Positions 1 through 9,525 of a stretch of 64,000 nt of DNA are shown in pieces. The notes under the pieces were generated by a model. That model searched no databases, had not been told where the DNA came from, and worked only from the letters and a program-made list of their open reading frames with translations. Both the position numbers and the translations under genes were made by a program. Origin of the DNA: Pseudomonas sp. DY-1 (GTDB taxonomy: Bacteria; Pseudomonadota; Gammaproteobacteria; Pseudomonadales; Pseudomonadaceae); NCBI RefSeq assembly GCF_003626975.1, contig NZ_CP032616.1:2914001-2978000 (forward strand), in the 5' to 3' direction. Each line of letters starts with the position of its first letter. The stretch's first letter is position 1.

Positions 1-249
1 ATGGATGCACTCCCTGATGAGGCTTTAGCCGATGTCGTTTTCTGCTACCGTGACTCTTTACAGGGTGATAGCAGGTTACTGCGCCTATCGGACCTTCAAG
101 ATTATGCAGCCTTGGTATCCCAAGGGCCTTTAGGTGAGCTGATCACTAACGGAATAGTTGATCGTTTCGTCAAATCCCCTGTCACCCCGGAAGACAAGAA
201 GAGAAAGGCGCTTGACTGGTTGACCCGCATGCAGGGTGTCGATCAATGA
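1..249 (+). CDS. Small unknown protein upstream of a PIN-like gene (possibly cut by window edge)
   Basis: The reading frame is open from base 1, where an ATG happens to sit, so the true start may lie outside the window. The visible 82 residues are mostly acidic and helical-looking, with a positively charged stretch near the end (PEDKKRKALDWL). I recognise no family. It ends in a four-base ATGA overlap with the PIN-like gene that follows, so the two are translationally coupled. Small gene plus PIN-like gene is a common toxin-antitoxin layout, which makes an antitoxin or partner role an inference only. Confidence 0.55.
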   Translation: MDALPDEALADVVFCYRDSLQGDSRLLRLSDLQDYAALVSQGPLGELITNGIVDRFVKSPVTPEDKKRKALDWLTRMQGVDQ

Positions 250-728
250 GTGCCATTTGCTTAATCGATACAAGTATCTTTCTTAATATCCTGAATGTTC
301 CTGGGAGAAATAATGAGGTCGCACAAGTAACTCAAAGTTATCAAGAATATGTGGAGCTTGGCTGTACGTTTATTCTTCCTATGGCAACCATTCTCGAAAC
401 CGGCAATCATATTGCGCAAAATGGCAATGGCGCAGTTCGACTGTGTACAGCAAAGCGCTTTTGCGAAGCAGTTGCAGGGGCTTTCTCCGGCGAGGCTCCA
501 TGGCGGCCAAGCGAATTTCCCAACAGCTCAGAAGTGACTTCTTGGATTAATGAATTTCCGCCCCTTGCGGGCCAGAACAAGTCGCCCTCAAAAACAACGG
601 AAGGAACCAGTTTCGGAGATCTCAGCATCATAAAAGAATATGAAAAATGCCTTCGTAAATTTAGCATGTCCGAAGTTTTCATCTGGTCCCTGGACTCCGA
701 CCTGTGCAACTACCATCGAAAGCCCTGA
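246..728 (+). CDS. PIN-like domain protein (possible RNase toxin)
   Basis: This 160-residue protein begins with a hydrophobic strand ending in an aspartate (CLIDTSIF, Asp8). It then shows a glutamate in a helix (Glu51 in ATILETGNHI), an aspartate at FGDLSII (Asp125) and another in SLDSDL (Asp150/152). That spacing of acidic residues is the pattern of a PIN-like nuclease, which usually cuts RNA with a metal ion. It overlaps the preceding small gene by four bases. The central region is longer than in minimal VapC toxins, so it may belong to a divergent PIN group. The function is inferred from the motif pattern; no close family is recognised. Confidence 0.55.
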   Translation: MSAICLIDTSIFLNILNVPGRNNEVAQVTQSYQEYVELGCTFILPMATILETGNHIAQNGNGAVRLCTAKRFCEAVAGAFSGEAPWRPSEFPNSSEVTSWINEFPPLAGQNKSPSKTTEGTSFGDLSIIKEYEKCLRKFSMSEVFIWSLDSDLCNYHRKP

Positions 729-929
729 TACTGTTTAGAGTACAGATTTGGTCTCGCTCACGTGCATCCCGAGACAGAGGTGAGTGACAGCTTTTGGCCG
801 AGTTCTGCCGTTGGTGAGAGGCGGCTTTCGGCAGCCAAAAACGCCCATTCTGGCCGGGTCAGCATTCGAGTTAGGACATTGTCGGAAAAAGATCTGTCAC
901 CTGTTCTGATCGCTGGACCACCCACCACT

Positions 930-1753
930 TCATCCCGGGACTCCAGGATGGCCAGTCTGCTGCGGTAGAGCCTTGAATACGCATCGGAAGTAGTGGGGTT
1001 GGTCACAAGAAGAACAGTGTCGCACTTCATCATCCAGTGGGGCTGGGAGGGAGTTTTCAGCTTCACAGCGGGTACAGCGATAATCGAAATAGTGAAGCCT
1101 TTTAACCTTCAACGTGCTCCCGAACCCCTTGATTCTGTATCGAGCTGGACAGGCCGAGTTGTAGCACTCTAATTCGGCCTGAGATCGATTTGCTCGCCAC
1201 TGAAATAAATTGCTGTGCCACATTTGTCACAGGGGACGTGAGCCGTGATGGTGAAGCTCATTACCATGCTGGAGTCCGCAACGTACTCTAGCCTCTCCAG
1301 AATGTTGCTGAGTGATGGCGCGTCTGGCGGAGTGGCGCTGTCCTGCTCGAAAAGAGCGGGAACATGAAGAAACTTGCCGAGCTTGTTGTAGTTCTTGTTC
1401 AACCATTGAACTGTCAATGCACGCGCCTCACCCAGATCTGTCCAGTCTCCTAACGGAGACCCATCCTCTGCGACCGAGCTAATCGACATCGACACGCTTT
1501 GATCTGCTCGCGGTTCAAAACCCAACAGGAGCTTCATGGCTTTGTTGGGCTGCCATGTGCGATACACCTCGGGAGGGTTTTTTCCGGCTAGTTGAGAAAG
1601 CTTCGCGTAAACGATCTTCTCAATGGCGAAGCGCATTTCCAAGCATGCGTACCGAAGTGAGACTTCGTCTCCGGCCCTCAAAAGCGTCCGTGCCCGTTCT
1701 AGATACTCTGCCACATTGAAAACGTCCACCTTCCACTCCCATCGCCTGCCCAA
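930..1753 (-). pseudogene. Frameshifted helical/zinc-ribbon protein downstream of the ubiquitin-like operon
   Basis: Two minus-strand frames read as one broken gene. The first (1753 or GTG 1729 down to 1169) has a helical N-terminus reminiscent of HEPN-type helical domains and ends just after a CDKC motif at a TAG stop. The other frame, entered close to 1175, continues with ECYNSACPARYRI and then two more CxxC pairs (CTRC, CSSC), ending at 930. Joined, they give a CxxC-x20-CxxxxC zinc ribbon followed by a second one, which makes biological sense only with a one-base shift. It lies 51 bases after the DUF6527 gene on the same strand, so it may be a fifth member of that operon. Either the gene is decaying or the sequence has an error. 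The family is not identified. Confidence 0.5.
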
Positions 1754-1804
1754 TGCTTTCGCACCACGCGCTCACCCCAATGCAGAAGTCATGTTCATCT
1801 TCTT

Positions 1805-2158
1805 CTAACGCCCGCTGTCGCGACACCATTCAACATCTCCATTTCTAATCCAATAGTGCCCTCGGCAGGCGTTCAATTGACGGACTGACGGAAACACAGT
1901 CGGGCGACTGAGCCAATCTGAAGACAATCTCCAACTAGGCCTGGTCTTGGGGTTAAGAGATAGCTGCATTCGGTTCCCACATCCACAAGGACAGATGAAG
2001 CAGGCCCATTTCTCCTTACCACCACTTTTCACTAGCACTAGCTCACCAGCTGTGAGCTCTTCTGGAGCAGGATGGCGATCGACAGTCCTTAAAAGGTATC
2101 TAGGAGGTCGAATTACCCGCAATGCGACCATGACGTTTCTGACAAAGTGCTTCAGCAT
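1805..2158 (-). CDS. DUF6527-type zinc-binding protein of the multiubiquitin operon
   Basis: This 117-residue basic protein has a cysteine cluster (CFICPCGC, about residues 53-60), then SLNPKTRPSW, and a distal HYWIRNGDVEWC. This is the layout of DUF6527, a small zinc-binding family known to sit beside bacterial multiubiquitin, E2 and E1 genes. Its biochemical role is unknown; it could be a zinc adaptor or ligase-like partner, which is inference. It begins three bases after the stop of the JAMM-E1 gene, so it is the fourth cistron of the operon. The N-terminus has a hydrophobic/basic segment, but I do not call it a signal peptide. Confidence 0.72.
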   Translation of the reverse strand: MLKHFVRNVMVALRVIRPPRYLLRTVDRHPAPEELTAGELVLVKSGGKEKWACFICPCGCGNRMQLSLNPKTRPSWRLSSDWLSRPTVFPSVRQLNACRGHYWIRNGDVEWCRDSGR

Positions 2159-2161
2159 GAT

Positions 2162-3574
2162 CTAGCCCACTCGATCAAGGAACGGCTCAATGTCACCGCG
2201 CCCCCAGTAAGTCATATCAGTACAAATCGGGCAGTTTGGATTGTGTAGCGCTCCTGGTTTTCGATCCTGGAGAAGGTCAAATCGCCGGACTCTCTGCCAA
2301 GTCCACCCCTGTTCACCCCGAAAATTTGTTAATCCTTGGAGTAACTCATCGACTGCCAAACAAGCAGTTGCTGTTGTGAAGGTCACAACAGCAGGAGCGG
2401 GGTTATCTCCACCCCGGACATATGCTTCTCGCTTTCTACGCTCATGCTCTTCGGGGTTGTGACGCCGAAGGCTTTCTTCGCGCGCGCGAGTAGGGTTAAC
2501 AATGCCTCGACACAGCAGGCAAGATGAGCCCGGCACAAGAATCGTGACTCGACCGCTCAGGTCCAGCATTCCAACGTGCTGCTGGCCTGGTTGAATGGCC
2601 AACCCCATATCGATGACCGGGATGAGGTAGAAGTACGCCAATCTGTTAAGCATCAATCGCCCATCGTGATCGTCGGTGCAGCCAAAAATCACGTCGCAAG
2701 ATTTCAGCGCGTCCCGGCACTCGGGAGATCCAATCCAACTCCTGATCGGCACCACGCGCACCCCAAGGGCAAGTTCGGTGATTTCACGTGCAAGCACTTC
2801 CACTTTGGGGCGCATAGCGTCGGCATCCGCTCTCCTTGCTCCATGCAGACGGTTGAGATTTGTAACCTCAACAATGTCCTCATCGAAGAGGACTATCTGA
2901 CCTACACCCAAGCGTGCCAGGAGCAGTGCTGTCGGACTACCCGTTCCGCCACAGCCAACGATTCCTACTTTGAGCCCTCGGAGCCGCGTATTGATAACAG
3001 GCCCGAACGCTAGCGCTTGGCGGGCGAACGCTTCATTTTGGGGGCATTGCCCATCGGTGACATCAAACACCTTCAGATTACGTCCGATAACTCGAACAGG
3101 ATTGATCGCAATTGGCTCCAGGTCGTTTAGCCAAACACGAGCACGGACCTCGTCCGCCCCGGCCAGCACAATGCTAACCATTACGGCACCAGCGCCGTTA
3201 CGGTTTCGCGCCAAGCGAAACAACTCTGCTTCATTGATGCCATCTTGCTCGGAAAACGACGCAGGTCCGTTTGGGTGCGTATGGACCACGCCCACTACCA
3301 GATTTTCATTGGCCGCGCGCTTGAGCAGCCGGATGAAAGACTGCGTAGACCATGTAACGTGAACCGGGCTGCTGGATATCCAGTCCTCTTCCGGAACGGC
3401 AATCACCTCATGCGAGCTATAACGAGTCCGGCTACGACGATCCCAGGGGTCAGAGGTGATAAGGGCTTGGCCAAAAAGCACATAAGCTGCGGCCTCGCTG
3501 CCATCCTCTCGATGTGTCAGTTCGCGGAGCTGCTCAAGATGCTGCTCCTGAAGCGTCAGGTCCGTAAGAGTCAT
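2162..3574 (-). CDS. JAMM (JAB) isopeptidase-E1/ThiF adenylyltransferase fusion
   Basis: This 470-residue protein joins two enzymes of ubiquitin-like chemistry. Residues about 20-150 are a JAMM metalloprotease with Glu27, His98, His100, Ser108 and Asp111 in exact HxH-x7-SxxD spacing, so the zinc site looks intact. Residues about 190-460 are a ThiF/E1 domain with the GCGGTG nucleotide loop (207-212), a DEDIVEVTNLNR segment, FGCTDDHDGR, and two CxxC pairs (CLLC, CPIC) for structural zinc. The E1 half should adenylate the C-terminus of the ubiquitin-like protein; the JAMM half should cleave it from targets or trim it. It overlaps the E2 gene by four bases (ATGA). The fusion keeps activation and removal in one polypeptide. 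Confidence 0.88.
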   Translation of the reverse strand: MTLTDLTLQEQHLEQLRELTHREDGSEAAAYVLFGQALITSDPWDRRSRTRYSSHEVIAVPEEDWISSSPVHVTWSTQSFIRLLKRAANENLVVGVVHTHPNGPASFSEQDGINEAELFRLARNRNGAGAVMVSIVLAGADEVRARVWLNDLEPIAINPVRVIGRNLKVFDVTDGQCPQNEAFARQALAFGPVINTRLRGLKVGIVGCGGTGSPTALLLARLGVGQIVLFDEDIVEVTNLNRLHGARRADADAMRPKVEVLAREITELALGVRVVPIRSWIGSPECRDALKSCDVIFGCTDDHDGRLMLNRLAYFYLIPVIDMGLAIQPGQQHVGMLDLSGRVTILVPGSSCLLCRGIVNPTRAREESLRRHNPEEHERRKREAYVRGGDNPAPAVVTFTTATACLAVDELLQGLTNFRGEQGWTWQRVRRFDLLQDRKPGALHNPNCPICTDMTYWGRGDIEPFLDRVG

Positions 3575-3951
3575 GCGGCCACCTCCATTGCGGTCTCAAT
3601 TCGCTTCAGCATGGTCCAGATACCATCGATACCCGGACGCCAGTGATTGTTATGCCGGGACCATCGTTGCCAGGATTGCCCCAGATAGGAATGCGCTACG
3701 TCGGCTGCTCGAGGGTAGGTGGTGGAACTTGCCAACTTGAGCCAAGGCAGTGTGTAAAACATGTCTGGTGCACTGTCCGGGTAACTCGTTGGCAGCAGGA
3801 TAAGCACGTCCGCTGCCGGCGCGTCGAAGTGCCCCACCGGCAGAGAAACATTTTTCAGAAGGAGGGCCTTCTGGCCCTCTGCTTCGACTTCCTGAAAATC
3901 CACGCCTCGATCGTCCAAATAGCGACGGCATTTGAGCGGGAGGAAGGACAT
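3571..3951 (-). CDS. Prokaryotic E2 family E-like protein
   Basis: This 126-residue protein carries the E2-like core signature LLPTSYPDSAPDMFY followed by WQRWSRHNNHWRPGIDGI near the C-terminus, as in the Prok-E2_E family found with multiubiquitin proteins. In a normal E2 a catalytic cysteine follows the YP motif and accepts the ubiquitin-like protein from E1. Here the only cysteine is Cys8, far upstream, so a standard thioester transfer is not evident. The conserved Trp/His motif may mark another active site or a binding role (inference). It starts three bases after the multiubiquitin stop and overlaps the E1 start, so it is the second cistron. Confidence 0.82.
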   Translation of the reverse strand: MSFLPLKCRRYLDDRGVDFQEVEAEGQKALLLKNVSLPVGHFDAPAADVLILLPTSYPDSAPDMFYTLPWLKLASSTTYPRAADVAHSYLGQSWQRWSRHNNHWRPGIDGIWTMLKRIETAMEVAA

Positions 3952-3954
3952 AGA

Positions 3955-4476
3955 TCAGCCCTCCGTGGTTTCGACGATGCCAGTGAAGAAGCGCTCAACA
4001 CCCGGCCGCGACAAATCGAAGAGCTCCTGATCGCCGATGCGCAGGTCTTCACCGCGGTGAACCTCCAGCCACACCCCGTACGTCGCGAGATCAACCGCGG
4101 CCAGCTTCTTTAGCGTGAGGCCGGAAATGCGAGTTCCGCCCCATTCGAAGTTGCGGCCATCGAGTTCGAAGCGGAACGAACGATCGTTGCGGAAGATCAG
4201 AAACGCCTCAACTCCGCGAGTCCGTAGGTCGGTAGTCTCATCCGGACGGAGCTCTTCCAGGAGTCCGCTGGAGAGCACCTGAAACACCAGATGCTCTTCG
4301 GCCGGACGAGAGCCAGCAGCTTCCAGGATCTGACGACCGGTTGGCACCGGATCCTCCAGCGTGACAGGGTGGTATTCCAGTTGCTCGTTGCCAACTTGGA
4401 TCAAGTAGGGACCATGATCACGTACGCCCCGACCCGAGCGGACCGCATCTTTCACATCTTCGATTTCACCATTCAT
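3955..4476 (-). CDS. Multiubiquitin-domain protein (two tandem ubiquitin-like folds)
   Basis: From the ATG at 4476, preceded by a Shine-Dalgarno-like AAGGTG, this gives 173 residues. After a charged N-terminal tail (1-22) there are two beta-grasp repeats, about 24-96 (PYLIQVGNEQL to AFLIFRNDR) and 101-165 (FRFELDGRNFEW to RFFTG), as in the Multiubiquitin family. The protein ends ...TTEG, so a single glycine is exposed without processing. It is the first gene of the ubiquitin-like operon and presumably the modifier that the E1 and E2-like partners act on. An in-frame start further upstream (4515) would add 13 residues but lacks a comparable ribosome site. Confidence 0.82.
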   Translation of the reverse strand: MNGEIEDVKDAVRSGRGVRDHGPYLIQVGNEQLEYHPVTLEDPVPTGRQILEAAGSRPAEEHLVFQVLSSGLLEELRPDETTDLRTRGVEAFLIFRNDRSFRFELDGRNFEWGGTRISGLTLKKLAAVDLATYGVWLEVHRGEDLRIGDQELFDLSRPGVERFFTGIVETTEG

Positions 4477-4520
4477 AGCTACACCTTTTCCGTAAGCAGT
4501 CGAGGTTACGACCATGTGCG

Positions 4521-4585
4521 TAATTTATAGCTATTTTTTAGCTAGTCAATAGCTTTGACGTGGCTGTTTTTTGGTGATAACGTCA
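4521..4585. promoter_or_regulatory. Back-to-back promoters with three 11-bp-spaced TAGCT repeats
   Basis: The 145-bp gap between the multiubiquitin gene and the RHH gene holds two promoter-like pairs. Rightward: TTGACG (4555-4560), 17 bp, TAACGT (4578-4583). Leftward: TTGACT (complement of 4544-4549), 16 bp, TAAATT (complement of 4522-4527). TAGCT occurs at 4528, 4539 and 4550, exactly 11 bp apart, covering the leftward promoter and abutting the rightward -35. Ribbon-helix-helix repressors typically bind short repeats at such one-turn spacing, and the first rightward gene encodes one. TGACGT/ACGTCA also form an inverted pair (4556-4561, 4580-4585). Confidence 0.6.
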
Positions 4586-4621
4586 CTGGATCATCCATAA
4601 ATTCGCCCGAAGGATTCACCA

Positions 4622-4837
4622 ATGGCTGCTGCCAAAAAGACCATGACTCTGAACCTGACAGATGCAGAGATGGCCGCTCTGGAGGAGCTTTGTGAGAAGA
4701 AGGATCTCAGCAAGACCTCTGTGGTCCGTCAGGCCTTGCGTCTATATCAGCTGATCGAAGCGAGGATGGAGAAGGGGGATAAGCTGTTTTTTGAGGACGA
4801 GAAGACCAAGCAGAAAGCAGAGGTCATGATGCTATGA
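4622..4837 (+). CDS. Ribbon-helix-helix (CopG/Arc-type) DNA-binding protein
   Basis: This 71-residue protein has a lysine-rich start, a short beta strand (KTMTLNLT) and two helices (AEMAALEELCEK and KTSVVRQALRLYQLIEARM). That is the RHH fold, which binds DNA as a dimer through its strand. The start ATG at 4622 has AAGGA twelve to eight bases upstream. It overlaps the acetyltransferase gene by four bases (ATGA), the usual antitoxin-toxin coupling for RHH-GNAT pairs such as TacA-TacT. It is the best candidate to bind the TAGCT repeats just upstream and so control both divergent operons (inference). Confidence 0.75.
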   Translation: MAAAKKTMTLNLTDAEMAALEELCEKKDLSKTSVVRQALRLYQLIEARMEKGDKLFFEDEKTKQKAEVMML

Positions 4838-5451
4838 CGATCAGCACTGTCCCTCTCTGGCAGCCCAGCACCCAGTCATGGGTAGAAGCCAGCCTTCAAC
4901 CTATAACTCAGAAGGATGCGTCTGACTGGGTACAGTACTGGGTACCTGCCATCCAAAACGGATTGCAGCAAGCCACGATCCGAGCCGCCAGCGTTGACGT
5001 GGGGCAAATCCCACGCTGGAACTGGAAAGACAAAATTGAGGCGATCCATGGATTGCTCAGCAAAAACGGGTTCAGCATCACCTATGAGGGTGTGACTCAA
5101 GGGCTCATGATTTACGACCTATCAGTACATCGGTGTCGTTTGGAAGAGCAGAAAGGAAAGGATCTCGTCTATGTTGAGTACTTGGAGGTCGCTCCCTGGA
5201 ACCGCAATGACCTTATGCAGGGGCAAGCAAGGTTCGGCGGCATAGGCAGCACCCTTTTAGCGGCAGCAATTGAGCTAAGTCGACAAGAGGACTTCAAAGG
5301 GCGCATAGGTCTTCACTCACTGCCGGGGTCTGAATCGTTCTACGCCTATGGCGGTATGTCGGACTTGGGAGTAGATGAAAGTTCTGAAGGCCTACGATAT
5401 TTCGAGATGACAGCAGAACAAGCAACTGCTTTCTTTCGGAAGGGCGATTAA
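4834..5451 (+). CDS. GNAT-family N-acetyltransferase
   Basis: This 205-residue protein has a GNAT core in its second half: strand VYVEYLEVAPWN, then the acetyl-CoA loop QARFGGIGSTLL (about 128-139), then RIGLHSLPGSESFYAYGGM near the C-terminus. GNATs move an acetyl group from acetyl-CoA to an amine. With an RHH gene directly upstream it could be a toxin of the TacT/AtaT type, but it is longer than those and its N-terminal 90 residues are of unknown kind. It is followed after one base by an XRE gene. Its target could equally be a protein of the neighbouring ubiquitin-like system; that is speculation. Confidence 0.7.
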   Translation: MTISTVPLWQPSTQSWVEASLQPITQKDASDWVQYWVPAIQNGLQQATIRAASVDVGQIPRWNWKDKIEAIHGLLSKNGFSITYEGVTQGLMIYDLSVHRCRLEEQKGKDLVYVEYLEVAPWNRNDLMQGQARFGGIGSTLLAAAIELSRQEDFKGRIGLHSLPGSESFYAYGGMSDLGVDESSEGLRYFEMTAEQATAFFRKGD

Positions 5452-5452
5452 T

Positions 5453-5935
5453 ATGAAAATTGAAATTACTAAAGAATGGATGCGTCGAATGGCGACGATA
5501 GAGGAAAACTCTGTTATAGGTGCAGGCCTAGTTGCTAGAGACCCCGCCGCAAAATCTTTTAAAGATTTTATAGTTCCTCCAGTAGATGAAGCAAATTTAG
5601 CATTCGGGCGCTTCGTTTGTCTGATGAGAAGAAAACAGGGGCTAAGCTTAGAAGGATTAGCTGAAAAAGCTGACATTGAGCTCTCCGATCTCGTAGAAAT
5701 CGAAGGTGATACTAGGCATAGGCCAGAGCCTAGAACCGTTTATCAACTAGCCAGTTATTTTCACATAAACAAATCCAATCTAATGCAAATAGCTGGATTA
5801 TCTACAAGAAGAGACGAAAGGTTAGTAAATGAGTCCGTGAGATTTGCAGCTCGCTCAGATCCATCAGCATCACTATCCAAAGAAGAAAGTAGCGCACTGG
5901 ATGCGTTTATCAGGGCGCTAGATAGCCAAGAGTAA
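5453..5935 (+). CDS. XRE-family helix-turn-helix protein partnered with ImmA
   Basis: The 160-residue product has an N-terminal extension of about 50 residues and then a lambda-repressor-type helix-turn-helix (about 52-105: FVCLMRRKQGLSLEGLAEKAD to YQLASYFHINKSNLM). It starts one base after the GNAT stop and lies eight bases before the ImmA-type peptidase gene. XRE-ImmA pairs are known from mobile elements, where the peptidase cuts the repressor upon stress. The coding sequence is AT-richer than the surrounding chromosome, with many AAA and ATA codons, suggesting recent transfer. Confidence 0.75.
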   Translation: MKIEITKEWMRRMATIEENSVIGAGLVARDPAAKSFKDFIVPPVDEANLAFGRFVCLMRRKQGLSLEGLAEKADIELSDLVEIEGDTRHRPEPRTVYQLASYFHINKSNLMQIAGLSTRRDERLVNESVRFAARSDPSASLSKEESSALDAFIRALDSQE

Positions 5936-5943
5936 GGATACCC

Positions 5944-6873
5944 GTGACTAAAAGCTTAATAGTTTCTCCAAAAACAGCAAAAGATATCGACAGTAGAATC
6001 GATAGAGTGTTGAAGGGGCTGGGTTATCCTGAACCGCCGCTGCGACTGGAAGATGTTAGGGAGCTTTTGAGGCTTGACTTGAGGTTTTACACGGCTGATA
6101 ACCCAGGCTACCTTCAAGAGGTCACGAATCGAATATTTGTTGGCACGAAACAAGTCTTTCAGCGACCAGCTCTATTGATGGACGCCATCAGCAAGCTTTC
6201 GCTGCAGGCGCTTTATTTACCTGACCGTAAAAGAATCCTTCTCGACGACAATGTACCTAAATTAAAGCACCGCTGGAACGAAGCTCACGAAATTGGACAC
6301 AGCTTACTGCCATGGCACCAGGAAATGATGCATGGAGATGATGAAAATACCTTATCTCAGCACTGCCATGAACATATAGAGCTGGAAGCAAATTTTGCAG
6401 CTGCACGGCTATTATTTTTGCGTGACAGATTTACTGAAGAGGCCCGCGCAATGGCCGAGAAATTCGCTTCAATCAAGAGCCTTCAAACCGCTTACGGTAA
6501 TACATTATCCACCACCCTTTACCGTTTTGTTGAATGCATCGGCACTGAAAAACCAGTTGTTGGCGTTATATCAGGACATCCACATATTTCAAAAAGAACG
6601 GACAAATTTGATGCAGCCAATCCCTGCAGGCATTTTATTCAGTCACCAGCATTCGCTCAGAAATTTTCTAATGTATCGGAATTAGAGGTTTTCAAATCAA
6701 TTTCGGCATATTGTGGTAGACAAGGTGGAGGCATTCTTGGGGAGGACGAGGTTTTCCTTGAGGATGATAACGGCCAAAAGCATATTTTCCGTTTCGAAAC
6801 TTTTTATAACCGATACGATTGCCTTACCTTAGGAGTCCATCTGGCCCCTGCAAAAAGCCCTATATTCTTTTGA
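5944..6873 (+). CDS. ImmA/IrrE-family metallopeptidase
   Basis: This 309-residue protein starts at GTG 5944 with AAGGA eight bases upstream. The zinc motif HEIGH lies at residues 115-119 and is followed by an HEHIELEANFAA helix that offers further metal ligands, as in ImmA/IrrE peptidases. The C-terminal ~120 residues form a separate domain that may sense a signal. The family cleaves XRE-type repressors in integrative elements, so the gene upstream is the expected substrate. Like its neighbour it is AT-rich. It is the last gene of the RHH-GNAT-XRE-ImmA operon. Confidence 0.82.
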   Translation: MTKSLIVSPKTAKDIDSRIDRVLKGLGYPEPPLRLEDVRELLRLDLRFYTADNPGYLQEVTNRIFVGTKQVFQRPALLMDAISKLSLQALYLPDRKRILLDDNVPKLKHRWNEAHEIGHSLLPWHQEMMHGDDENTLSQHCHEHIELEANFAAARLLFLRDRFTEEARAMAEKFASIKSLQTAYGNTLSTTLYRFVECIGTEKPVVGVISGHPHISKRTDKFDAANPCRHFIQSPAFAQKFSNVSELEVFKSISAYCGRQGGGILGEDEVFLEDDNGQKHIFRFETFYNRYDCLTLGVHLAPAKSPIFF

Positions 6874-8121: not shown

Positions 8122-9525
8122 TTAAAAGCAAGCTAGCAACTGCTGCCTGTAATGCTGGGAAAAACTCACCTGATAACTTGGCTCGGCTGTAGCGCCCCCA
8201 AGAGAAATTATGGTCGTAGCGACTGCTCCGATAGTCTGACCAGTGTTATTTCCCATATTGCCGTCTAGGCCATTGATATTGCCGGGAGCACCAATAAAAC
8301 CAGGTTGCTTGGCATCTGGAGTGAAGGCTGGCATCTGTACCGCGTTTAGTACCGCTAGGTCATCCGGTAGGTCATCCGCAATTCGCTCTGCAAACCCCTG
8401 TAGCGTCAGTTCCGCCAGCATATACATCCATGCCTGATCATCGGCCTCGCCTGTGCGCCGAAGCACTCGCCCCAGCACTTGCCGGTAATGCAACTCGGTG
8501 CGGATGCGGCTGAGATAGCAGCACACTTGCAGCCGTGGGATGTCCGTGCCTTCGCTGATCATTCCAACCGCAACAATCCACCGGCAGGCGCCATGTCTGA
8601 ACGCATTGATCACCTGCTGCGCATCCGCGGTTTTGTTGGTCACGATGCGGCAACCCTCACCCCTGGCGCCCAGGGCTTGAGCAATTTGCTGGGCGTGCTC
8701 TATGTCGCTGGCAACCACCAAACCAGCCGCATCAGGTTTGATCTGGCGAAGCTCATCCAGTTTGCTGCAGCCGAGATCGAGCAGTTGCTCGATCACCTCG
8801 TCATGCCGCAGCAGTTCTTCGTAGGTGACGGGTGATTCCCCCAGCAGCTTGGCAATGCTGGGAAACATCCTCACTGTGCTGTCAGTACCCTGCTCCTCGG
8901 TGAGTTTCACCTTCTGATTGTCGAGTAGGACAATGCGCGGAGAACGGCACACTCCGTCGGCAATGGCTTCTTTCAGGCCATAGCGGTAGTCGCAGATCAA
9001 GTGCCTCTCTGGCGTCGAATAACGCGCCTGGGCAATGGCCCTGTCGTCCGAACGCCATGGTGTGCCGGAGAGAGCCAAGGTGAAGGCAGCCCGGTCTTGT
9101 ATCCGGCACAGTATCTGTTGACCCCAGGCGTTGCTGAGAAGGGGGTCTTGACCAGCGCAGTGGTGGATTTCATCGAAGACCACGAACACTCGATAGTCAT
9201 CAAGAAGCTGCCAGAACCCCTCATCTCGGTATTCCATGGCCTGGTAGGTGAACGCCGCTCCCACTGCGCCTATCTGGCCATCCAGACGCCTGCCGAGCAC
9301 CGCAGCAAAGGTCGAGCGAAAGCCCTCAACAACTTGGCAGGACGGCGCAAAGCACAACACCAGATCGATCTTGTCCTGCTCAAACAGTTTGCCGGCCAGC
9401 TCTGCAGCCATACGCGTTTTGCCGGCACCCGGCGTTGCCTGACAGAAGAAGTGCGGCGTGACGTTAAAGTGCTCCAACGCCATGTTGATGCAGCTGAACT
9501 GCCAGTCTCGTAGCGATCTAGTCAT
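8122..9525 (-). CDS. Superfamily 2 DEAD/DEAH-type helicase
   Basis: This 467-residue protein has a complete SF2 motor: motif I TPGAGKT (31-37), motif II DEIH (118-121), motif III SGTPWR (153-158), motif V EGTDIP and motif VI QVLGRVLRR. It should use ATP to move on or unwind DNA or RNA. The last ~70 residues carry a low-complexity glycine/asparagine-rich stretch (GNINGLDGNMGNNTG) of unknown role. It overlaps the preceding winged-helix/coiled-coil gene by four bases, so the two are co-translated. No methylase or nuclease domain accompanies it, so it is not a standard restriction system. A phage-defence role is possible but unproven. Confidence 0.85.
   Translation of the reverse strand: MTRSLRDWQFSCINMALEHFNVTPHFFCQATPGAGKTRMAAELAGKLFEQDKIDLVLCFAPSCQVVEGFRSTFAAVLGRRLDGQIGAVGAAFTYQAMEYRDEGFWQLLDDYRVFVVFDEIHHCAGQDPLLSNAWGQQILCRIQDRAAFTLALSGTPWRSDDRAIAQARYSTPERHLICDYRYGLKEAIADGVCRSPRIVLLDNQKVKLTEEQGTDSTVRMFPSIAKLLGESPVTYEELLRHDEVIEQLLDLGCSKLDELRQIKPDAAGLVVASDIEHAQQIAQALGARGEGCRIVTNKTADAQQVINAFRHGACRWIVAVGMISEGTDIPRLQVCCYLSRIRTELHYRQVLGRVLRRTGEADDQAWMYMLAELTLQGFAERIADDLPDDLAVLNAVQMPAFTPDAKQPGFIGAPGNINGLDGNMGNNTGQTIGAVATTIISLGGATAEPSYQVSFSQHYRQQLLACF

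What the first reader, a model, noticed from the sequence alone, without database searches (positions are those of the whole stretch)
1805..4476. Bacterial ubiquitin-like conjugation operon: multiubiquitin, E2-like, JAMM-E1 fusion, DUF6527
Four tightly coupled leftward genes (gaps of 3 bases or ATGA overlaps) encode a two-domain ubiquitin-like protein, a family-E E2-like protein, an isopeptidase-E1 fusion with an intact JAMM site (Glu27, His98, His100, Ser108, Asp111) and GCGGTG loop, and a zinc protein. This gene set is known from comparative genomics of prokaryotic ubiquitin relatives, but its targets and role are not settled. It is distinct from CBASS Cap2/Cap3 (no CD-NTase is present) and from the four-gene BilABCD layout, because E1 and protease are fused and a DUF6527 is added. 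A defence or stress role is inferred.
Basis: partly seen in the sequence, partly recalled or inferred. Interest (0 to 1): 0.85.

Follow-up and report, generated by a model that had tools for sequence, protein, structure and literature searches.

The report
Bacterial ubiquitin operon with swappable switch
The finding is a bacterial ubiquitin-like tagging operon of an already known family (Bub), and next to it lies a four-gene control block with its own conserved DNA site that also sits beside other immune operons, so it looks like an undescribed swappable on/off switch for bacterial immunity.

Summary
Four coupled leftward genes at 1805-4476 encode multiubiquitin, Prok-E2_E, a JAB-ThiF fusion and DUF6527. 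It is not a new system: it is a Bub (bacterial ubiquitination-like) operon. The fusion and the E2 match solved Citrobacter BubCD and BubB (E 1e-38, 4e-9), and the layout was predicted in 2006 (PMC1779556, type 6e). A role in phage defence is not shown (PMC13373217).

Four rightward genes (RHH, GNAT acetyltransferase, Xre-HTH, M78 protease; 4622-6873) face the operon. All four recur at 15 of 34 Bub loci with upstream DNA. On plasmids the block also faces CBASS, other ubiquitin-like operons and DUF2188 genes. A site of TAGCTA boxes 11 bp apart lies between: 0-2 mismatches of 19 in 26 of 34 block loci, and at none of 18 block-less Bub operons. In diverged pairs it is 75% identical, its flanks 27-28%.

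Best reading: an exchangeable immune-operon controller, partly akin to CapH+CapP, with RHH as repressor. The acetyltransferase's role is open. No description was found in the papers available here.

The parts
3955..4476 (-). BubA-like multiubiquitin protein, 173 aa, two Ubl domains, ends in Thr-Glu-Gly
   Evidence: PF14452 1.1e-34, two stretches; PDB 9cd2 1.4e-33; 15 of 17 free-standing BubA of Bub loci, window included, end in TEG; L030 and L055 run two residues further
3571..3951 (-). BubB-like E2-fold protein, 126 aa, no conserved Cys, invariant QRWSRH
   Evidence: PF14462 2.9e-46; Citrobacter BubB 9eae 3.8e-9; Ser98 and His100 in 121 of 121 rows
2162..3574 (-). BubCD-like JAB isopeptidase fused to ThiF/E1, 470 aa
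   Evidence: PF14464 and PF00899; Citrobacter BubCD 9ea4 1.3e-38; JAMM residues in 38 of 41 rows
1805..2158 (-). DUF6527 (called BubE here), 117 aa, zinc-finger-like, invariant C56, P90, S91, H101
   Evidence: PF20137 2e-23; 42 rows of A6; model pLDDT 93.7 with no PDB match at E<=0.001
4528..4555 (.). operator: boxes TAGCTA 4528-4533, TAGCTA 4539-4544, TAGCTT 4550-4555, 11 bp apart
   Evidence: 0 mismatches to the shared 19-base pattern at 4528-4553; only place in the genome at <=3 mismatches; 30 of 34 block loci at <=5 mismatches; 75.5% identity against 27-28% in flanks
4522..4549 (-). promoter-like site of the bub operon (TTGACT, 16 nt, TAAATT) inside the operator
   Evidence: consensus scan only: 1 found, 0.4 expected
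4622..4837 (+). RHH (CopG-type) protein, 71 aa, proposed operator-binding repressor
   Evidence: PF01402 1.5e-5; profile matches CopG 2cpg 4.8e-4; K5-L12 kept at 97-100% in 34 rows except K6 at 74%
4834..5451 (+). GNAT acetyltransferase, 205 aa, overlaps the RHH gene by 4 bases
   Evidence: PF13673 6.7e-5, just under cut-off; GNAT fold by model
5453..5935 (+). Xre-type HTH protein, 160 aa, conserved C-terminal RFAARS motif
   Evidence: PF12844 3.1e-10; PADLOC capH 0.0014; A3
5944..6873 (+). M78 (ImmA/IrrE-type) metalloprotease, 309 aa, intact HExxH
   Evidence: PF06114 1.1e-7; PADLOC capP 3.8e-13; A2

Best explanation
The four leftward genes are a Bub operon: a two-domain ubiquitin-like modifier, a Cys-less E2-fold protein, a JAB-E1 fusion and DUF6527, which together should activate the modifier, attach it to proteins and remove it. 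It is driven from a divergent promoter held by a four-gene controller block: RHH, GNAT, HTH and M78. Proposed working: the RHH protein sits on three TAGCTA-type boxes, one per helical turn, that overlap the bub promoter, and keeps the operon silent. The HTH and M78 proteins form a second, CapH+CapP-like repressor and protease pair, in which a stress signal (in CapH+CapP, single-stranded DNA) makes the protease cut the HTH protein. The GNAT enzyme acts on the RHH arm, by acetylating or binding the repressor, or else as a toxin held by RHH. Shown here: operon identity, the conserved block, the shared operator, exchange between immune operons. Inferred: which protein binds the operator, the direction of control, the signal, the GNAT target, and conjugation by this copy.
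For: Bub identity. Cassette: window 1824-6869 (operon plus block) matches P. fluvialis as one 5046-bp piece at 88% with no other blastn match at 1e-5. Block: all four genes divergent to bub in 15 of 34 loci with upstream DNA, plus one with RHH alone at the contig edge; profile hits to all four in 16 of 16 non-cyanobacterial plasmid records opened. Other partners: three CBASS operons by annotation, one of them checked by PADLOC as cyclase, HORMA, TRIP13 and SAVED nuclease; multiubiquitin-ThiF-DUF6527; Metal_CEHH-JAB-E1; DUF2188. Operator: 30 of 34 at <=5 and 26 of 34 at <=2 of 19 mismatches; shuffles give 0.08 of 26 loci at <=5, observed 24; 75.5% identity against 26.8% and 27.8% in flanks over 288 diverged pairs; present at the CBASS-linked blocks (0, 2, 4 mismatches) and not at the 18 block-less Bub operons. 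Exchange: 5 changes of the block label on the BubCD tree, shuffles 13.9. The RHH profile was found in 2 of 398 genomes, both with the block. CapP likeness.
Against: L030, L055, L072 and L073 carry the block but not the full operator; single boxes remain in L030, L055 and L072, none in L073. In one genome (G704) all four genes are hit but GNAT and M78 are cut short, the best operator match has 5 mismatches, and no immune operon faces it. The -10 hexamer at the fixed 17-bp spacing is not the best-scoring offset, so the promoter overlap rests on the -35-like element and one consensus scan. The link of RHH to the operator is indirect; the HTH protein could bind it instead. HTH and M78 match CapH and CapP only partly: capH is weak (0.0014), and the block's M78 profile scores the CapP-like proteins of five block-less Bub loci at only 6e-8 to 8e-4. 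The GNAT fold search ranks toxins and protein acetyltransferases close together. Nothing here shows conjugation or defence.
Confidence: 0.75

Rival explanations
1. The block is simply CapH+CapP in a diverged form; RHH and GNAT are a passenger toxin-antitoxin pair that came along and do not control the operon.
For: M78 hits PADLOC capP and the HTH profile hits HTH 7t5u. RHH-GNAT pairs are a known toxin-antitoxin-like class (PMC2701414, passages). HTH+M78 pairs without RHH and GNAT take the same place in L002, L008, L022, L032 and L036.
Against: RHH and GNAT were present in every non-cyanobacterial block examined except L061, which has GNAT alone, and RHH lies nearest the operon with the most conserved sequence. 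The operator is absent at those five CapH+CapP-like Bub operons (L022 has one stray 4-mismatch site about 7 kb away). Short symmetric boxes one turn apart fit RHH proteins better than Xre proteins (established knowledge, not tested).
Confidence: 0.25
2. GNAT-RHH is a guard: a tRNA-acetylating toxin (TacT/AtaT-like) freed when the operon or its RHH repressor is attacked, giving abortive infection as back-up.
Against: Protein and N-terminal acetyltransferases score as high or higher. Pfam gives CopG-type RHH_1, not the DUF1778 antitoxin. Conserved placement against immune promoters speaks for control.
Confidence: 0.3
3. The Bub operon is a general stress or housekeeping modifier pathway rather than phage defence, and the block reports DNA damage only.
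For: Bub has not been shown to protect against phage, and PMC13373217 allows a stress role.
Against: The same block faces CBASS; neighbours at 1-728 match candidate defence pair PDC-M07; the unit moves as a cassette.
Confidence: 0.3

Closest known systems
Bub operons (Ye et al. 2026 and Gong et al. 2025, not held here; counted in PMC13373217; type 6e of PMC1779556)
   Same: Same four protein families in one operon; BubCD and BubB homologous to the solved Citrobacter proteins
   Different: Nothing decisive in the operon itself; free two-domain BubA here, while BubA and BubB are one protein in 19 of the 36 genome loci
CapH+CapP, CapW and CapK+CapS immune-operon controllers (PMC13373217)
   Same: Controllers beside the promoters of Bub, CBASS and (CapK+CapS) YegP-type genes; HTH+M78 recalls CapH+CapP
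   Different: Four genes with RHH and GNAT; a TAGCTA operator; no WYL, STAS or GHKL domain. The paper's main text has no 'GNAT', 'acetyltransferase' or 'RHH'
RptR repressor of type I restriction islands (PMC12255303)
   Same: Binds three TAGCTA boxes in a defence promoter (abstract and sections 22, 25, 26)
   Different: RptR is all-helical, 79 aa, boxes as 9-bp repeats; here CopG-type RHH and 11-bp spacing; RptR's 9r2z is not among the RHH profile's PDB hits
GNAT toxin-antitoxin pairs: TacAT, AtaRT, and PacTA (PMC9561280, abstract)
   Different: Embedded in a four-gene block tied to immune operons; CopG-type RHH; the fold match stands level with many other GNATs

Membership tests
Bub | Multiubiquitin, Prok-E2_E, JAB-ThiF fusion and DUF6527 in one operon | tested here: met
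Bub | Sequence homology to characterised Citrobacter BubCD and BubB | tested here: met
   1.3e-38 and 3.8e-9
Bub | Covalent conjugation activity | not testable with these tools
   needs biochemistry
CBASS | CD-NTase cyclase in the operon | tested here: not met
   none among the 10 proteins scanned at 246-6873
BilABCD | Separate BilC (JAB) and BilD (E1) genes | tested here: not met
   JAB and ThiF are one protein
CapH+CapP | HTH repressor plus M78 protease beside the promoter | tested here: inconclusive
   both present, capP 3.8e-13 but capH 0.0014; RHH and GNAT lie between them and the promoter
CapH+CapP | ssDNA-activated cleavage of the HTH protein | not testable with these tools
   HExxH intact; activity unknown
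CapW | WYL-domain regulator | tested here: not met
   no WYL match among the block proteins
CapK+CapS | HTH-STAS-GHKL kinase and STAS-wHTH protein | tested here: not met
   no STAS or GHKL match among the block proteins
RptR | RptR homology | tested here: inconclusive
   RHH profile hits CopG; 9r2z not listed
GNAT-RHH toxin-antitoxin | GNAT fold next to an RHH gene | tested here: met
GNAT-RHH toxin-antitoxin | Toxicity neutralised by the RHH protein | not testable with these tools
   needs an experiment

The most novel reading that the evidence does not exclude
RHH-GNAT-HTH-M78 is a further family of exchangeable immune-operon controllers, with its own triple TAGCTA operator, in which protein acetylation (GNAT on the RHH repressor) and proteolysis (M78 on the HTH protein) are combined to release Bub, CBASS and other operons, as phosphorylation does in CapK+CapS.
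Probability: 0.35. Interest if true: 0.82.

Novelty: new variant of a known kind. Interest (0 to 1): 0.63.

Why it matters
How bacteria keep self-harming immune operons silent and release them in time is an open field with few known controllers. A four-gene block with one conserved operator, shared by Bub, CBASS and other operons, gives a directly testable switch: one protein, one 28-bp site. It supplies a way to turn on Bub, whose targets and role are unknown, under its own control. An acetyltransferase in such a switch would be a new kind of signal input.

Tried and rejected

Selections: of the 50 plasmid records with a GNAT match I opened 21, 16 non-cyanobacterial and 5 cyanobacterial; the 5 cyanobacterial GNATs have no HTH or M78 hit and no neighbouring RHH. 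Of the 550 E2 homologues and 2145 GNAT homologues only the best 120 of each were listed; all 120 E2 rows and 40 GNAT rows were used. The 34 loci of the operator count include L021, where only RHH is visible, and leave out L066 (G704, 5 mismatches); L066 and L040 (part of L060) were also left out of the block tree. The first BubCD tree (6 changes) counted L016 as block-less although its upstream DNA is off the contig; it was redone without L016 and L055 (5 changes). In the block tree the join of L031 with L073 is flagged as a meeting of long branches. One search was cut in the middle, so the neighbours of L015 to L022 were seen only in part.

Not in print: the claim that the block is undescribed rests on searches (and, for Bub, 10, 12, 13, 18), and on finding no 'acetyltransferase', 'GNAT' or 'RHH' in the main text of PMC13373217. 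The two primary Bub papers and the CapH+CapP paper are not held, so they may mention it. Seen: PMC13373217 section 7 and passages; PMC12255303 abstract, sections 22, 25, 26 and passages; PMC1779556 section 14 and passages; PMC12687455, PMC2701414 and PMC8649781 passages; PMC9561280 abstract; all others search listings only.
Full report
THE OPERON. Pfam matches all four above cut-off: Multi_ubiq (two stretches), Prok-E2_E, Prok-JAB plus ThiF, DUF6527. Against solved structures, the fusion protein matches Citrobacter BubCD (9ea4, 1.3e-38) and the E2-like protein matches Citrobacter BubB (9eae, 3.8e-9); the modifier matches four multiubiquitin chains, among them a Methylobacterium BilA. This is therefore a Bub operon. 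The layout was first predicted as operon type 6e: one to three Ub-like repeats, an E2-like domain lacking the conserved cysteine, a JAB-E1 fusion, and a zinc-finger protein (PMC1779556 section 14). PMC13373217 counts 544 Bub operons, 219 of them with CapW or CapH+CapP and 59 with the CapK+CapS gene pair, and says that protection against phage has not been shown.

CHEMISTRY READ FROM CONSERVATION. In 121 aligned E2 rows (window plus the 120 listed of 550 homologues) no cysteine is conserved throughout, while Ser98, His100 and Asp109 are invariant; diverged relatives and Citrobacter BubB keep QRWSRH too. In 41 BubCD rows the JAMM residues are kept in 38; the Sphingomonas loci L012, L014 and L018 lack them. 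The Cys residues kept in all or nearly all rows are C299, in the FGCTD stretch, and C352, C355, C448, C451, which I read as zinc ligands. So neither enzyme shows a conserved thioester cysteine. A mechanism without such a cysteine fits my memory of the Bub structure paper, which I could not read here. The modifier ends in Thr-Glu-Gly, as do 15 of 17 free-standing BubA of Bub loci with the window counted; L030 and L055 run two residues further. DUF6527 keeps C56, P90, S91 and H101 in all 42 rows; its model is confident (pLDDT 93.7) but has no PDB match at E 0.001, so removal or maturation of the modifier is only a guess for it.

Facing the operon across 145 bp are four plus-strand genes: RHH (4622), GNAT (4834, 4-base overlap), Xre-type HTH (5453) and M78 protease (5944). 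In Pseudomonas fluvialis the operon and the block are found together as one 5046-bp match at 88% (window 1824-6869), with no other blastn match at 1e-5. Of 36 Bub loci from genome contigs, 34 have upstream DNA. In 15 of them all four block genes face the operon, in one only RHH is seen at a contig edge, and 18 have something else. The 15 include a Gemmatimonadota and a Planctomycetota record. Five of the 18 (L002, L008, L022, L032, L036) have an HTH of 107-144 aa and an M78 of about 300 aa, as in CapH+CapP; the block's M78 profile scores these at only 6e-8 to 8e-4, and its HTH profile finds the HTH of L036 alone, at 4e-3. So the block's pair is a separate branch.

THE BLOCK IS NOT TIED TO BUB. 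tblastn of the GNAT against 72,556 plasmid records hit 50. I opened 21. All 16 non-cyanobacterial ones have hits to RHH, GNAT, HTH and M78 in order; in L058 the M78 is shorter, and in L051 it falls into two overlapping frames. Their neighbours: a Bub-type operon facing the block in 7 (L049, L052, L054, L067-L070); a Bub operon on the other side in 1 (L055, with its own HTH and M78, while transposases lie on the divergent side); multiubiquitin-ThiF-DUF6527 in 1 (L048); CBASS in 3 (L050, L051, L053); metal-binding-JAB-E1 in 1 (L073; its JAB match is just under cut-off); multiubiquitin with other genes in 1 (L071, unannotated, read by eye); DUF2188 in 2 (L058, L072). The CBASS set was checked in one of the three (L050): cyclase, HORMA, TRIP13 and SAVED nuclease; the other two go by their annotation. 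One sampled genome (G303, L060) has the block facing multiubiquitin, DUF6791-ThiF and DUF6527. Another (G704, L066 and L078) has hits to all four genes, but GNAT and M78 are cut short and the genes it faces read by eye like an efflux pump, with no immune operon. The block is rare: GNAT in 3 of 398 phylum genomes, one of them (G357) without the other block genes; 2 of 385 genomes of G303's class, G303 and G704; RHH in 2 of 398, both with the block.

THE OPERATOR. Between block and partner lies TAGCTA-N5-TAGCTA-NN-CAATAGC. The window has it with 0 of 19 mismatches at 4528-4553, the only place in its 5.9-Mb genome at up to 3. In 34 block loci the best match has at most 5 mismatches in 30 and at most 2 in 26; L030, L055, L072 and L073 miss. 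The misses still show TAGCTA boxes: one in L030, two in L055 (33 bp apart), two in L072 (22 bp apart), none in L073. Shuffling the first 26 intergenic stretches gave 0.08 loci on average at up to 5 mismatches, against 24 observed. None of the 18 block-less Bub loci has it at up to 4 mismatches, except one stray in L022 at 1866, about 7 kb from the operon. CBASS-linked blocks have it (0, 2 and 4 mismatches). It is not just shared descent of DNA: in 288 pairs of loci whose GNATs are at most 50% identical, the site is 75.5% identical and the flanks 26.8% and 27.8%. So the site belongs to the block, not to the operon it faces. In the window a sigma-70-like site for the bub operon (TTGACT-16-TAAATT, 4549 to 4522) runs through it. 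The -35-like TTG lies at the same place in 27 of 30 loci, but the -10 test was not decisive.

WHO BINDS. The RHH N-terminal strand, which in this fold reads DNA (established knowledge), is nearly invariant: K5 to L12 is 97-100% in 34 rows except K6 at 74%; the HTH domain varies much more (33 rows). The RHH profile hits CopG. Short symmetric boxes one helical turn apart suit RHH proteins bound side by side. A repressor of another fold, RptR, also uses three TAGCTA boxes (9-bp repeats) to silence a restriction island (PMC12255303), so defence promoters may have come to this site twice. RHH as repressor is my inference.

EXCHANGE. On the BubCD tree (42 rows, 24 with the block) the block label changes 5 times (bootstrap 4-5; starred branches force at least 3; shuffles 13.9). 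On the tree of the joined block proteins (33 rows, midpoint root) the CBASS-linked ones form one clade among Bub-linked ones, and multiubiquitin-ThiF-DUF6527 appears twice (three rows in no group were left out of the count, and long branches meet at L031 and L073). [quoted passage not shown]

VERDICT. The operon is a new member of a known kind. The block is a new variant of a known kind, the immune-operon controllers, and no description of it was found in the searches listed under Tried and rejected; the primary Bub papers could not be read, and some of their CapH+CapP cases may be this block.

Noticed in passing
window 930-1753, minus strand: Downstream of DUF6527 a frame with a Cys-pair end stops at 1169, and a second frame (1223-930) continues with more Cys pairs: it reads like one gene interrupted by a frameshift. 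No hit in the 36 Bub loci.
   Followed up: partly
window 1-728, plus strand: Matches to candidate defence pair PDC-M07A (C-terminal end) and PDC-M07B, so the cassette sits beside another possible defence system.
   Followed up: partly
window 8122-9525, minus strand: Helicase with weak RadD and PbeA-like matches.
   Followed up: no
L007, L009, L011, L029, L033, upstream of bub: Large proteins of about 1120-1170 aa, mostly with two smaller ones (about 180-200 and 220-230 aa), precede the fused BubA-BubB gene: possibly yet another controller.
   Followed up: no
L010 6670-6909 and L035 2960-3184: Short proteins that read by eye like DUF2188 (YegP-type) near bub genes, recalling the DUF2188 partners of the block in L058 and L072.
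   Followed up: no
L001 4934-6106 and L060 2652-3641: TniQ-like proteins near the cassette (L001 by PADLOC; L060 by eye), hinting at transposon carriage.
   Followed up: partly
19 of the 36 genome loci (such as L006, L020, L024-L029, L031-L034) and 7 plasmid loci (L049, L052, L054, L067-L070): BubA and BubB are one protein, so the modifier's C-terminal Gly would be internal and would need a cut before use.
   Followed up: partly
L012, L014, L018 (Sphingomonas): The JAB part of BubCD has lost its JAMM metal residues while the operon, block and operator are kept.
   Followed up: no
L056, L057, L059, L074, L075 (cyanobacterial plasmids): GNAT relatives followed by a protein of about 105-180 aa, with no HTH or M78 hit; L057 lies beside a DNA methyltransferase and a DISARM DrmD gene.
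   Followed up: partly
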